Shown: positions 17,759 to 54,768 of the stretch, piece after piece
How positions within the stretch are numbered: position 1 is the first letter of the stretch
How the letters are laid out: each line of letters begins with the position of its first letter
NCBI GenBank assembly: GCA_021807115.1
Contig: JAKAPJ010000007.1
Location: forward strand, 1 to 54,768
Direction of reading: 5' to 3'
Source of the DNA: Microcaldota archaeon
GTDB lineage: Archaea; Micrarchaeota; Micrarchaeia; Micrarchaeales; Micrarchaeaceae
Length of the DNA stretch: 54,768 nucleotides
The notes under the pieces: model-generated
What the model was told of the DNA's origin: nothing
Databases searched by the model: none
Seen by the model: only the letters and a program-made list of their open reading frames with translations
Translations under genes and position numbers: made by a program

Positions 17759-17796
17759 GTGAGCAAGCAGGAAAATAATATCCACATGTGATTGAA

Positions 17797-17997
17797 ATGA
17801 TGATGCCCGTCAGGTGCTTCAGTTGCGGCGCAGTTGTCGCCGACAAGTGGGCCGAGTACGACAAGAGGGTAAACAAGGAGAAGGAGGACGCCGGCAGGGT
17901 GCTCGACGACATGGGAGTCAAGAGGTACTGTTGCCGTCGCATGTTCATAAGCAACGTGGAACTTATAGACGAGTTTATAGCAGTAAGCAAGAAATGA
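17797..17997 (+). CDS. rpoN: DNA-directed RNA polymerase subunit N
   Basis: Subunit N (Rpo10) is a zinc-bundle protein that binds D and helps assemble the polymerase. PVRCFSCGAVVADKW near the N-terminus and GVKRYCCRRMFISNVELID contain the four zinc Cys (CxxC and CC) and are almost invariant in the family. 66 aa from ATG 17797 (MMMPVRCF); the frame opens 9 nt earlier at GTG 17788. rpoK, which often follows rpoN, is absent; tRNA-Pro follows. Confidence 0.95.
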   Translation: MMMPVRCFSCGAVVADKWAEYDKRVNKEKEDAGRVLDDMGVKRYCCRRMFISNVELIDEFIAVSKK

Positions 17998-18028
17998 TTA
18001 TATAACCGAAGGCTAAAGAGATTAAGCA

Positions 18029-18118
18029 GGGGCCGTCTGCTAGCTTGGTAGGCTTCTACCTTGGGGTGGTAGCGACCCGAGTTCAAATGGCGCAAGCCTG
18101 AAAATCTCGGCGGCCCCA
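18029..18118 (+). tRNA. tRNA-Pro (anticodon GGG) with an intron in the T-loop
   Basis: Acceptor GGGGCCG/CGGCCCC with discriminator A, anticodon stem CTACC/GGTAG and loop TTGGGGT (anticodon GGG, Pro). The T-arm is interrupted: CCGAG TTCAAA at 18077-18087 is separated from T CTCGG at 18105-18110 by 17 nt. Removing them restores a perfect T-arm CCGAG-TTCAAAT-CTCGG. The gene sits between rpoN and uS2 in the operon, and the mature tRNA needs splicing at position 59/60. Confidence 0.93.
18088..18104 (+). other. 17-nt tRNA intron at position 59/60 with a perfect BHB motif
   Basis: The splice region folds as a complete bulge-helix-bulge. The outer helix is the T-stem CCGAG/CTCGG. The central 4-bp helix is TTCA (18082-18085) with TGAA (18099-18102). 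The two 3-nt bulges are both AAT (18086-18088 and 18103-18105). The inner helix GGC/GCC is capped by a GCAA tetraloop (18089-18098). Cutting after the second bulge base on each side, as archaeal endonucleases do, gives exactly the 17-nt intron and a standard T-loop. Confidence 0.88.
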
Positions 18119-19830: not shown

Positions 19831-19978
19831 AGTATATACCCACATTCCCAGATATTTAGACCTTTAAGCGACCACGTCATGCGCGGCGGCGGGCCTAAGA
19901 AATGCATAAAGATTTTCATGCATAATGGAATCTGAGTGCATGCGCACCATAGACGGGCGGAAAGGCGCAGGAACGCAA

Positions 19979-20884
19979 ATGTTCTCTCGTGTTAAATGCG
20001 CACCTGCGGGCAGGCGGCAGCAAGCATGCTGCAGGTCCCAGTCCGCTATGGAGTACCTCATGACCTACGGCTGGGCCATCCTTGTGATCGCGGTGGTGCT
20101 GGGCGTGCTCTTCCAGCTCGGCGTTTTCGGGGGCGCAAATCTGGCCCCCCGAGCCCAAGCGGGGAGCTGCCAGGTGCAGCGCACTGCCGCGGGGATATCG
20201 CTCGAGGGCATGTGCCAGGGCGAGATGCCGCAGTACGTTGCTACTTTCGGGGGCGGTTCCAGCACTGACATACAAGTATCCAGCCCATCTTCGTTCACCG
20301 CCCAGAACCTGACCGTCGCAGTGTGGGTGTACCCCACCACATTCTCGTTCCCGTGCTGCAGCAGGGGAAAGGTTGCAGGAAATAACTTTGGCGGCAACAA
20401 TGACTTCTATGTAGACATAAACTCCGGCGCCTACCCTGAGGCTTATGTTTACACCACCAGCTGGCACAACCTCCCCACCACTGGGGTGGTGCTGTCAACA
20501 AACACATGGTATTTCGTCGCCGAGACGTACAACGGTTTCTACCAAAGCATCTACTTCGACGGCGCGTACAACAACGGAGGTGCATGCGCATGCGGCAACC
20601 TACCCTCGCCCCAGGGGACGCTTGGGATAGGCGGAGGCGGGGGCGACAGCCCATTCGTAGGCGATATCGCAAACCTCCAGCTCTATAACACCACGCTCTC
20701 CGCAGCCGAGATAAAGGCCCTCTACCAGGAGGGGATAGGCGGCGCGCCAGTTAGGCCGCAGAGCATCATAGGCTGGTGGCCCCTCAACGGCGGCACAAAT
20801 GACTACAGTGGCGGCAACAACGACGGCCAGAACAACGGCGCCGGGTACACCAGCTTCTGGACGAACGGCTATTCCGCGCCCTGA
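19979..20884 (+). CDS. Secreted LamG-domain protein with class III signal peptide (copy 1)
   Basis: The N-terminus carries CRSQSAMEYLMTYGWAILVI, a class III pilin-type signal with one hydrophobic helix, preceded by a basic Cys-containing stretch. The rest is a LamG/concanavalin-like beta sandwich: LTVAVWVYPTTF, NTWYFVAETY and DIANLQLYNTTLSAAEIKAL are typical of the family, which binds sugars or proteins outside the cell. The C-terminus ends in a Gly/Asn-rich GWWPLNGGTNDYSGGNNDG region. Start uncertain: ATG 19979 or 19925. It is followed 7 nt later by a paralogue. A surface adhesin or pilus-tip role is likely but inferred. Confidence 0.8.
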   Translation: MFSRVKCAPAGRRQQACCRSQSAMEYLMTYGWAILVIAVVLGVLFQLGVFGGANLAPRAQAGSCQVQRTAAGISLEGMCQGEMPQYVATFGGGSSTDIQVSSPSSFTAQNLTVAVWVYPTTFSFPCCSRGKVAGNNFGGNNDFYVDINSGAYPEAYVYTTSWHNLPTTGVVLSTNTWYFVAETYNGFYQSIYFDGAYNNGGACACGNLPSPQGTLGIGGGGGDSPFVGDIANLQLYNTTLSAAEIKALYQEGIGGAPVRPQSIIGWWPLNGGTNDYSGGNNDGQNNGAGYTSFWTNGYSAP

Positions 20885-20891
20885 TGATTGC

Positions 20892-21776
20892 ATGAGGTCC
20901 CAATCAGCAATGGAATATCTCATGACCTACGGCTGGGCGATACTCGTCATAGCCGTTGTCCTGGGCGTGCTGTTCCAGCTGGGGGTATTCGGCTCCGCGA
21001 ACCTCGCGCCCAAGGCAAAGGCCGGGCAGTGCCAGGTGCAGATAGTGGGCAGCGGGTCCTCCACGACCCACCAGCTCGCGGGGCTGTGCAGCCCAGAGCT
21101 GCCGCAGTACGTGGCGCAGTTCGGCGGCAATTCCTACATATACATACCATCGCATGTCACTCCCGGCGGTGTAACCACGGCATTCAGTGTTTTCGCCTGG
21201 GTATATGTCCCCGTCGCACCAAACGGCGACTCGCACGGGGGCGTGGTTGAGCAGGAATGCAGCGGCACATGCACGTGGTTCGTGGAGCTTGTAAGCAACG
21301 GTGCGGGCAGCGTTTCCCCCTGCTACTACTATGACGGCTCAAACTACAACTGGTGCTCGTATTCCACGCCGCTGGACTTCCCCCTGGACACATGGGAGTT
21401 CGTCGGGTTTGTTGTGACGAGTAGCAACATATACGCATATGCTGATAACCAGGAGGTCACGGTCGGCGCCTCATACGCGACAAATTCCCTTGCGGTTTTC
21501 CCTACATGGATCGGCACAAGGGGGGACGGGATATGCGGCACGTGCATAACTGGAGATATCGCCGACGTACAGGCGTACAATGCGTCCCTGACGCAAGCCG
21601 AGGTGGATGCGCTATACATGGAGGGGATAGGCGGCGCGCCAGTGCGCCCGCAGAACCTGACGGGATGGTGGCCGCTCAACGGCAACACCAACGACTACAG
21701 TGGCAACAACAACAACGGCCAGAACAACGGTGCCAGCTATAGCAGCTTCTGGACCAGCGGGTATTCCGCGCCATGA
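20892..21776 (+). CDS. Secreted LamG-domain protein with class III signal peptide (copy 2)
   Basis: A tandem paralogue of the preceding gene. It starts cleanly at ATG 20892 with MRSQSAMEYLMTYGWAILVI, showing that the signal begins almost at the first residue. The LamG core (TAFSVFAWVYVPVA, DTWEFVGFVV, DIADVQAYNASLTQAEVDAL) and the terminal repeat GWWPLNGNTNDYSGNNNNGQ match copy 1 closely, while the middle differs, as expected for a diversified binding surface. Cys pairs (CSGTC, CGTC) suggest disulfides outside the cell. 294 aa. Cotranscription with copy 1 is likely. Confidence 0.82.
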   Translation: MRSQSAMEYLMTYGWAILVIAVVLGVLFQLGVFGSANLAPKAKAGQCQVQIVGSGSSTTHQLAGLCSPELPQYVAQFGGNSYIYIPSHVTPGGVTTAFSVFAWVYVPVAPNGDSHGGVVEQECSGTCTWFVELVSNGAGSVSPCYYYDGSNYNWCSYSTPLDFPLDTWEFVGFVVTSSNIYAYADNQEVTVGASYATNSLAVFPTWIGTRGDGICGTCITGDIADVQAYNASLTQAEVDALYMEGIGGAPVRPQNLTGWWPLNGNTNDYSGNNNNGQNNGASYSSFWTSGYSAP

Positions 21777-27562: not shown

Positions 27563-27686
27563 GCCAGGGTGGCAGAATCCGGTAATGCGCCGGTCTTGAG
27601 TTTTCAAAACGTCAAGAGCTGACTAGTGATGCGACAAGCCAACCGGTGCCCTTCGGGGCTTTAGGGTTCAAATCCCTACCCTGGCG
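27563..27686 (+). tRNA. tRNA-Ser (anticodon TGA) with a 40-nt intron
   Basis: Acceptor GCCAGGG/CCCTGGC, discriminator G73 (serine identity), long variable arm with stem GCCC-TTCG-GGGC, and T-arm TAGGGTTCAAATCCCTA. The anticodon stem CCGGT (27590-27594) pairs with ACCGG (27642-27646). After removal of 27601-27640 the loop reads CTTGAGA, anticodon TGA. The two exons are 27563-27600 and 27641-27686. Confidence 0.92.
27601..27640 (+). other. Canonical tRNA intron at position 37/38
   Basis: The central BHB helix is CTTG (27595-27598) with CAAG (27635-27638). The 3-nt bulges are AGT (27599-27601) and CCA (27639-27641), both cut after the second base. The inner helix is weak, so this is a relaxed BHB; the intron itself contains the palindrome GTTTTCAAAAC at the splice side. 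Confidence 0.85.
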
Positions 27687-53235: not shown

Positions 53236-53952
53236 CCTGCCGCGGCTGCGCCCCCGCAGCGCCGCGTCTATACCACTGACCACACCATTCTTGTACAGGA
53301 CCTTCCATCCCCTCCGCTCAGCCATTTCTCTGAGCGCCGCGCCAGGGTTGAGCGCAATCGGGTTGCCCACCATCGCCAGCATACTGGCGTCCGCCACCGA
53401 GTCCCCGAAGGCGTACGAGCCCCCGTAGTCGAACATGCCCGCCAGCTTTGAGAGCATCCTTTCCTTGCCGTCCGGAAGGTGCATCGGGGTCTCTATACTC
53501 CCGGTATAAACACCATCCCTTGCCTCAAGCCTTGTTGCATATACCTGCGATATGCCAAGGTCCGCGGCCGCAAGCGACACCACCTCGTATGCCCCTGCAG
53601 AAACCACCACCGACATGAACCCCGCCGCCGCCATAAGCGACACCAGCTCCCTCGACTCCCTGTATATATTGTGCCCGAATGATTTGAAGAACTCCTTCGC
53701 GCAGTCCGCAACCTCTGCGACCCCCTTCCCCTTGAGGCCCTCTGCCCACAGCTCGCCCCACCTCTCAACCCACTCGTCGTACGTCATTGCCCCGGACCGC
53801 TGCAGTCCGTATATGCGTCTCTGCTCCCTGTAGGCAGCGTCGTTGTAGACCCCCCTGCCATGCAGGTAGTCCATGAATTCCATGGATATGTAGCCGGAAC
53901 TCAGCGTCCCGTCGAAGTCAAAAAGTGCAGCCTTCCTCATGCCCTCGGCCAT
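53230..53952 (-). CDS. HAD-family phosphatase (SerB/HAD-IB-like)
   Basis: A 240-residue phosphohydrolase of the HAD-IB subfamily. Motif I ALFDFDGTLSSGYIS (nucleophile and acid Asp), motif II VVVSAGAYEVV (Ser), Lys of motif III in DGKERMLSKLAG, and motif IV YAFGDSVADASMLAMVG. The helical cap (residues 25-95) is as in phosphoserine phosphatases and related HAD-IB enzymes acting on small molecules. A TATA-like GGTTAAATAGC (minus strand, about 53977-53988) favours ATG 53952; 53940 is the alternative. Confidence 0.87.
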   Translation of the reverse strand: MAEGMRKAALFDFDGTLSSGYISMEFMDYLHGRGVYNDAAYREQRRIYGLQRSGAMTYDEWVERWGELWAEGLKGKGVAEVADCAKEFFKSFGHNIYRESRELVSLMAAAGFMSVVVSAGAYEVVSLAAADLGISQVYATRLEARDGVYTGSIETPMHLPDGKERMLSKLAGMFDYGGSYAFGDSVADASMLAMVGNPIALNPGAALREMAERRGWKVLYKNGVVSGIDAALRGRSRGRS

Positions 53953-54023
53953 GCAGCCACGCATATACAATGTGCACCAAGCTATTTAACCATGTCAACC
54001 GCGTGCCTGCCTCGGTGCGCAAC

Positions 54024-54033
54024 CTCTTTAAAC
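54024..54033 (+). promoter_or_regulatory. TATA box of endA
   Basis: CTCTTTAAAC, centred about 32 nt before ATG 54061, fits a leaderless transcript. Confidence 0.5.
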
Positions 54034-54060
54034 TCATCCGGCAAATCATCTGTGCTGGCT

Positions 54061-54768
54061 ATGCTACTATTGGAATTTAGTGGCGCCAAAAGCATCGTCG
54101 CAGTGGATCAGTCCACGAAGGACACACTCAAGCGGGGGCATTTTGGCGCCGAGAGCGGAGGTGCGCTTGCGCTGTCCCCAGAGGAGGCTCTGTACCTGAT
54201 TGACGTGCGCAACGCCGAGTGCAGGGCCGACGGCCGCATCATGCGCTTCAACGACGTGGCCTCCCGCATGGGCGCAAGGGGTAGGACACTGGCGCGCTAC
54301 CTTGCCTACAAGGACTGGCGCGACCGCGGGCTGATAATAAAGGACCCTTCCTTCTCTCACAGCGACGCGGGCAAGACCCCCATTAAAAAATATCCCGCCG
54401 GCCACCTCAAGCTCAAGGGCTACAGGATAGAGGGCATGTTCTTCCCGGAGAGCCTGATGGCGGTGGTCGACGACCAGCAGGCAGGCAGGGACATATACAC
54501 CGAGCACTGGTTCGGGCAGTTTGCTACTTACAAGCTGGGCGAGCGCGGCGTGCTGAACAAGCTTGATGCGTACGAGACGGTCTTCCTCATGGACCACGGC
54601 GCGCTCACGATGGGGAACGCCAGCCGCGCCGACGTGTTCGCCGCCGCCTCGCGCCGGCGCAAGGACTTCCCAAAGCTCTACGAGGTCTATGCAGACTGGC
54701 GCGACAAGGGCTACGTTGTCAAGACTGGCTTCAAGTTCGGCACGCACTTCAGGATATACTTTCCCGGC
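54061..54768 (+). CDS. endA: tRNA-splicing endonuclease, multi-unit type (partial, 3' end cut)
   Basis: The enzyme cuts BHB motifs in tRNA precursors. From ATG 54061 the frame is open to the window end (236 codons). The last visible part YADWRDKGYVVKTGFKFGTH with Tyr218 and His229 is the catalytic domain; the catalytic Lys would lie beyond the edge. Before it comes a related unit: YKDWRDRGLIIKDPSFSH (about residues 82-99) repeats the same motif without the catalytic His. Two N-terminal-type units (SPEEALYLIDV; DAYETVFLMDHGALTM) are visible. An ordinary alpha4-type enzyme is about 180 aa, so this is a duplicated or three-unit form, as in ARMAN/Micrarchaeota. Confidence 0.85.
   Translation, partial: MLLLEFSGAKSIVAVDQSTKDTLKRGHFGAESGGALALSPEEALYLIDVRNAECRADGRIMRFNDVASRMGARGRTLARYLAYKDWRDRGLIIKDPSFSHSDAGKTPIKKYPAGHLKLKGYRIEGMFFPESLMAVVDDQQAGRDIYTEHWFGQFATYKLGERGVLNKLDAYETVFLMDHGALTMGNASRADVFAAASRRRKDFPKLYEVYADWRDKGYVVKTGFKFGTHFRIYFPG

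What the first reader, a model, noticed from the sequence alone, without database searches (positions are those of the whole stretch)
18029..18118. tRNA-Pro with a 17-nt intron in the T-loop (59/60) and a textbook BHB motif inside a ribosomal operon
The insertion between TTCAAA and T of the T-loop folds into a complete bulge-helix-bulge: outer T-stem, 4-bp TTCA/TGAA, two identical AAT bulges, and a GGC-GCAA-GCC mini-hairpin. Cutting after the second bulge base gives a perfect mature T-arm. Introns at 59/60 are known from Thermoproteales and a few other archaea but are rare elsewhere, and this one is among the shortest possible. Because the tRNA sits between rpoN and uS2, splicing would also act on an operon transcript.
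Basis: partly seen in the sequence, partly recalled or inferred. Interest (0 to 1): 0.85.

Follow-up and report, generated by a model that had tools for sequence, protein, structure and literature searches.

The report
Archaeal proline tRNA with T-loop intron
A tiny archaeon (Micrarchaeota) carries its only detected proline GGG tRNA gene interrupted by a 17-base intron in an unusual place; the intron is real, is shared with gains and losses across its relatives, and is almost certainly cut out by the known archaeal tRNA-splicing machinery.

Summary
At 18029-18118 lies a tRNA-Pro(GGG) with a 17-nt insertion (18088-18104) between positions 59 and 60. It folds as a strict bulge-helix-bulge (TTCA/TGAA, two AAT bulges, GGC-GCAA-GCC), and removing it gives a perfect 73-nt tRNA. 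ARAGORN and Rfam both miss the gene. The host is a Micrarchaeota MAG related to ARMAN-2. Of 50 tRNA-Pro genes at the same rpoN-uS2 site, 36 have a 59/60 intron (12-21 nt, 30 sequences), and in all 36 the 4-bp central helix forms. Twenty have another intron at 53/54, 11 have both, 5 have neither; one intronless relative has identical exons. The pattern occurs in 59 of 301 Micrarchaeota genomes. The genome encodes an ARMAN-2-type epsilon endonuclease (catalytic triad and ARMAN-loop lysine kept), at the window's end, and RtcB. No other tRNA-Pro(GGG) was found (genome 86% complete). A T-loop intron also interrupts tRNA-Leu(CAA). The best reading is a protein-spliced archaeal tRNA intron: a new member of a known kind. 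It is neither the shortest possible nor isolated. Strictly operonic transcription is not established, because a TATA-like box lies about 28 nt upstream. Splicing itself was not observed.

The parts
18029..18118 (+). pre-tRNA-Pro(GGG) including discriminator A73; no encoded CCA
   Evidence: missed by ARAGORN and by Rfam at gathering score
18088..18104 (+). 17-nt intron TGGCGCAAGCCTGAAAA between positions 59 and 60
   Evidence: absent from L036, whose exons are identical
18082..18085 (+). 5' strand of BHB central helix, TTCA (positions 54-57)
   Evidence: pairs 4/4 in 36/36 homologues
18099..18102 (+). 3' strand of BHB central helix, TGAA, in the intron
18086..18088 (+). bulge 1, AA|T: predicted 5' splice site after 18087
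18103..18105 (+). bulge 2, AA|T: predicted 3' splice site after 18104
18089..18098 (+). inner mini-hairpin GGC-GCAA-GCC
   Evidence: inner pairs kept across distinct introns: 128 observed vs 27.7 +/- 5.8 shuffled
17998..18005 (+). TATA-like TTATATAA upstream of the tRNA, candidate own promoter
   Evidence: AT peak at -31 to -24 in relatives; inference
17788..17997 (+). rpoN (RNA polymerase subunit N), upstream neighbour
   Evidence: PF01194
18133..18801 (+). ribosomal protein uS2, downstream neighbour
   Evidence: PF00318
53860..54768 (+). open ORF whose part from about 54067 is the 5' part of an epsilon-type (ARMAN-2-like) tRNA-splicing endonuclease; the gene runs off the contig and its 3' part starts contig C4 (L031:3-581)
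   Evidence: 4FZ2/9W2K matches, E 2.8e-76 and 5.4e-104

Best explanation
18029-18118 is a functional, apparently single-copy tRNA-Pro(GGG) gene of a Micrarchaeota archaeon, interrupted by a protein-spliced archaeal tRNA intron at 59/60. The T-stem is the outer helix; exon TTCA pairs with intron TGAA as the 4-bp central helix; the two 3-nt bulges AA|T are cut after their second base by the epsilon2 (ARMAN-2-type) endonuclease encoded in the same genome. RtcB then joins the exons, giving a normal TTCAAAT T-loop. Shown: anatomy, homologous intron set, intronless orthologue with identical exons, enzyme genes. Inferred: cleavage, ligation and expression.
For: Exact BHB anatomy and perfect mature tRNA. 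36 of 50 syntenic tRNA-Pro genes carry a 59/60 intron with 30 different sequences, and all 36 form the 4-bp helix while the mature body is restored to 72 nt (73 in L052) before A73. Inner-helix pairing is far above shuffles. L036 has 100% identical exons without the intron. 59/301 phylum genomes carry the pattern, 0 hits with the reversed control. The endonuclease is a close relative of ARMAN-2 EndA; reading along the alignments, Y236, H251, K282 and the ASL residues Y160-K161 are conserved. The ARMAN-2 enzyme cleaves BHB and relaxed BHL pre-tRNAs in vitro, dependent on Y160/K161 (PMC12397907). RtcB is present. No other tRNA-Pro(GGG) was found in the genome.
Against: No RNA data. The thermodynamic model gives the central helix only 0.29 probability in the unspliced RNA, and the global MFE does not contain it. 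The genome is 85.75% complete, so a second GGG copy cannot be excluded.
Confidence: 0.95

Rival explanations
1. A decaying tRNA pseudogene or assembly error with a chance insertion in the T-loop.
For: Standard tRNA finders do not report it.
Against: Exons are intact and identical to an intronless orthologue; the same insertion site with different, pairing-competent sequences occurs in 58 other genomes and in 35 other syntenic loci; it is the only GGG copy found.
Confidence: 0.02
2. The insert stays in the tRNA as an enlarged, tolerated T-loop (no splicing).
For: None directly; splicing was not observed.
Against: A retained insert would break the TTCAAAT T-loop and its elbow contacts (established tRNA biology); length (12-21 nt) and sequence vary freely while the BHB pairs are held.
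Confidence: 0.03
3. Beyond simple removal, the intron is kept for a function, for example to time T-arm modification or protein binding, or as a processing checkpoint on the rpoN-tRNA-uS2 transcript.
For: Long persistence of an intron at one site across two families; conserved position between rpoN and uS2.
Against: Intron sequence is not conserved; five close relatives have none at the same site; candidate own promoter upstream of the tRNA. A neutral intron explains all data.
Confidence: 0.1

Closest known systems
Non-canonical archaeal tRNA BHB introns at 59/60 (listed with 53/54, 56/57 and others in PMC4090602)
   Same: Same position, same BHB anatomy, same cut rule, removal by the EndA family.
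   Different: Here in Micrarchaeota tRNA-Pro(GGG) at a syntenic locus, 12-21 nt in the synteny set, hypervariable in sequence and repeatedly gained or lost, often next to a 53/54 intron.
ARMAN-2 (Ca. Micrarchaeum acidiphilum) epsilon2 endonuclease and its pre-tRNA substrates (PMC12397907, PMC6379350, PMC4033280)
   Same: Same phylum, same three-unit enzyme with the ARMAN-specific loop; ARMAN-1/2 are recorded as having tRNAs with multiple introns.
   Different: [quoted passage not shown] Whether ARMAN-2's own tRNA-Pro was listed in Fujishima et al. 2011 could not be read (paper not held).
Closely spaced multiple introns that must be removed one before the other (described in tRNAscan-SE 2.0, PMC8450103)
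   Same: 11 relatives have introns at 53/54 and 59/60, only 6 exon bases apart, with overlapping helices.
   Different: Both lie in one T-arm; not present in the window's own gene.

Membership tests
Archaeal BHB (EndA-spliced) tRNA intron | Removal gives a complete, standard tRNA | tested here: met
Archaeal BHB (EndA-spliced) tRNA intron | Two 3-nt bulges on opposite strands separated by a 4-bp helix at the exon-intron junctions | tested here: met
   TTCA/TGAA with AA|T and AA|T
Archaeal BHB (EndA-spliced) tRNA intron | Pairing maintained across homologues with different sequence | tested here: met
   36/36 central helices; inner pairs 128 vs 27.7 +/- 5.8 in shuffles. The exon strand never varies, so no two-sided covariation in the central helix; introns were found with a pattern that imposes GAA, introns were not
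Archaeal BHB (EndA-spliced) tRNA intron | Host encodes a splicing endonuclease and RtcB-type ligase | tested here: met
Archaeal BHB (EndA-spliced) tRNA intron | Cleavage and exon ligation in RNA | not testable with these tools
   needs RNA-seq or in vitro assay
Epsilon2 (ARMAN-2-type) endonuclease | Three-unit single chain with catalytic Y/H/K and ARMAN-specific loop lysine | tested here: met
   alignment along 4FZ2 residues 5-387 over two overlapping contig ends; Y236, H251, K282, Y160, K161 kept
Group I self-splicing tRNA intron | Large catalytic RNA core | tested here: not met
   17 nt only; only tRNA families reach gathering score in the window

The most novel reading that the evidence does not exclude
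The T-arm of tRNA-Pro(GGG), together with that of tRNA-Leu(CAA), is an intron hot spot in Micrarchaeota, where very short introns (12-21 nt at 59/60) are gained, lost and rewritten quickly at 53/54 and 59/60 of what appears to be a single-copy essential tRNA. In copies with both introns, the 53/54 intron must be spliced first, because its helix uses the same bases as the T-stem on which the 59/60 BHB is built.
Probability: 0.4. Interest if true: 0.5.

Novelty: new member of a known kind. Interest (0 to 1): 0.4.

Why it matters
It shows that a gene which two routine tRNA searches miss is present but interrupted, so tRNA counts of Micrarchaeota may be underestimated. The set of about 50 syntenic genes with 0, 1 or 2 T-arm introns, some with identical exons, is a ready natural series for asking how archaeal tRNA introns come and go and how small a substrate the broad-specificity epsilon2 endonuclease accepts.

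Tried and rejected
Folding energy alone was rejected as evidence: the window's central helix has a probability of only 0.29. Searching the own genome with GGTTCRA...GAANNNC found no further T-loop intron, because the tRNA-Leu T-stem differs; that intron was found by reading the Rfam hits. The 2011 ARMAN endonuclease paper is not held. Group I intron, pseudogene and assembly error were considered and rejected.

Full report
Observation. The sequence at 18029-18118 reads GGGGCCG TC TGCTAGCTTGGTAGGC TT CTACC TTGGGGT GGTAG CGAC CCGAG TTCAAA [TGGCGCAAGCCTGAAAA] T CTCGG CGGCCCC A. Without the bracketed 17 nt (18088-18104) it is a complete tRNA-Pro with anticodon GGG. Five registers of the excision give the same product. 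The BHB rule picks one: central helix TTCA/TGAA, bulges AA|T and AA|T, inner hairpin GGC-GCAA-GCC, T-stem as outer helix, hence position 59/60. ARAGORN and Rfam at its gathering score do not report the gene. Random 17-mers form the central helix in 1.6% and the central plus 3-bp inner helix in 0.08% of draws. Energy is not decisive: BHB -11.6 against -11.9 kcal/mol for the best local fold, and a helix probability of 0.29.

Host. The nearest named relatives by uS2 are Candidatus Micrarchaeota / Micrarchaeaceae MAGs; that many come from acidic sites is background knowledge of the group, not tested. The genome held is 1.18 Mb in 44 contigs, 85.75% complete. The neighbours are an RNA polymerase Rpb3/RpoA-type subunit (rpoD) - tRNA-Leu(GAG) - a gene without a Pfam match - eL18 - uL13 - uS9 - rpoN - tRNA-Pro - uS2.

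Relatives. In 52 loci (51 relatives and the window), 50 have a readable tRNA-Pro upstream of uS2; L059 is cut by its contig end and L071 has none there. Of the 50, 36 have a 59/60 intron of 12-21 nt with 30 different sequences; in all 36 the 4-bp central helix pairs (TGAA, or TGGA in L042 and L060). Twenty have an intron at 53/54 (13-35 nt; positions 48-51 pair fully with the intron in 19, 3 of 4 pairs in L064), 11 have both and 5 have none; five loci (L076-L079, L082, one of them Fermentimicrarchaeum) carry a further anticodon-arm insertion. L036 has the window's exons letter for letter without the intron. This is direct comparative evidence for exact excision boundaries.

Breadth. The 59/60 pattern is found in 59 of 301 genomes of the phylum (20 of 126 genera), all but one in the window's family and one other family of its order, with none for the reversed control. 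The 53/54 pattern is found in 57 of 301, of which at least two look like chance hits in other sequence. Over 51 distinct 59/60 introns (two duplicate rows were left out of the script), contiguous inner pairs total 128 against 27.7 +/- 5.8 in shuffles, maximum 49 of 2000; the search pattern itself imposes GAA in the central helix, so only the inner helix is tested there.

Evolution. On a five-protein tree of the 52 loci, presence of the 59/60 intron needs at least 6 changes, and the 53/54 intron at least 6. In an 8-row group beside the window (support 90/95, not starred) 5 lack the intron and 3 have it. The count cannot tell gain from loss.

Machinery. The window's last ORF (53860-54768) and the first ORF of contig C4 overlap in protein sequence and match ARMAN-2 endonuclease 4FZ2/9W2K over residues 5-239 and 199-387, so one epsilon-type gene is probably split by the assembly. 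Read along the alignments, the triad Y236, H251, K282 and loop residues Y160, K161 are kept. RtcB is present (E 5e-165). The ARMAN-2 enzyme cleaves a BHB and a BHL pre-tRNA in vitro and needs Y160/K161 (PMC12397907). Position 59/60 is a recorded non-canonical site (PMC4090602), and ARMAN-1/2 are recorded with multiple-intron tRNAs (PMC4033280).

Copy number. Thirty-eight Rfam tRNA hits and a blastn of the mature tRNA show one other tRNA-Pro, anticodon CGG. No second GGG gene was found. tRNA-Pro(TGG) was not found either; the genome is incomplete.

Another T-loop intron. tRNA-Leu(CAA) in the same genome (L088) has 13 extra nt in its T-loop, with a relaxed motif. A similar layout (GGGAGTTCAA...GAACAAATCTCCC) occurs in many genomes of the order; the loose pattern hit 115 of 301, including some unrelated hits.

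Two introns in one arm. In 11 relatives the 53/54 intron pairs with positions 48-51, which are also needed for the T-stem, the outer helix of the 59/60 BHB. In predicted ensembles the T-stem is at or below 0.02 in 10 of these 11 precursors and rises to 0.47-0.90 in 8 of them once the 53/54 intron is removed; L039, L064 and L072 do not follow, and the 53/54 central helix itself is dominant (0.93 or more) in only 6 of the 11. Ordered splicing is therefore likely but only inferred; such ordering is already described in general (PMC8450103).

Operon. The rpoN-tRNA-uS2 order is conserved, but TTATATAA at 17998-18005 sits about where an archaeal TATA box would serve the tRNA, and relatives show a modest AT peak there (0.83 against 0.66); in others (L056, L070, L081) rpoN ends too close for that. 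Whether splicing acts on an operon transcript is open.

Verdict. Observation confirmed, interpretation supported, kind already known. Interest is moderate, mainly for the lineage-wide series of 0, 1 or 2 very short T-arm introns.

Noticed in passing
G000 contig C29:11287-14375 (L111): About 3 kb insertion at tRNA-Lys(TTT): a 134-bp direct repeat (96% identical) starting with the 3' part of the tRNA flanks a stretch that opens with a tyrosine-recombinase-like ORF (L111:238-1002), the look of a small integrated element.
   Followed up: partly
L088:155-252 (G000:C15:5754-5851, - strand): tRNA-Leu(CAA) with a 13-nt T-loop intron; similar introns in many Micrarchaeota.
   Followed up: partly
L063 versus L065/L066: Close relatives by protein tree, but L065/L066 carry a tRNA-Pro with the window's exons and a different 59/60 intron and lack the 53/54 intron: possible gene conversion or transfer of the tRNA gene.
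   Followed up: no
window 27563-27686: tRNA-Ser(TGA) with a 40-nt anticodon-loop intron, reported by Rfam but not by the default ARAGORN run.
   Followed up: no
window 19925-21776: Two tandem paralogous ORFs with a shared pilin-like N-terminus (SAMEYLMTYGWAILVIAVVLG) and similar C-terminal ends (SFWT(N/S)GYSAP).
   Followed up: no
window 53860-54768 and L031:1-581: Splicing endonuclease gene split between two contig ends that overlap; C35 and C4 are probably adjacent in the genome.
   Followed up: yes
L084:188-327 (- strand): tRNA-Trp-like gene with a 67-nt intron containing GATGATGATGA, possibly a box C/D guide as in other archaea; not tested.
   Followed up: no
L071: No tRNA-Pro between rpoN and uS2 in this relative, although 49 relatives have it upstream of uS2.
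   Followed up: no
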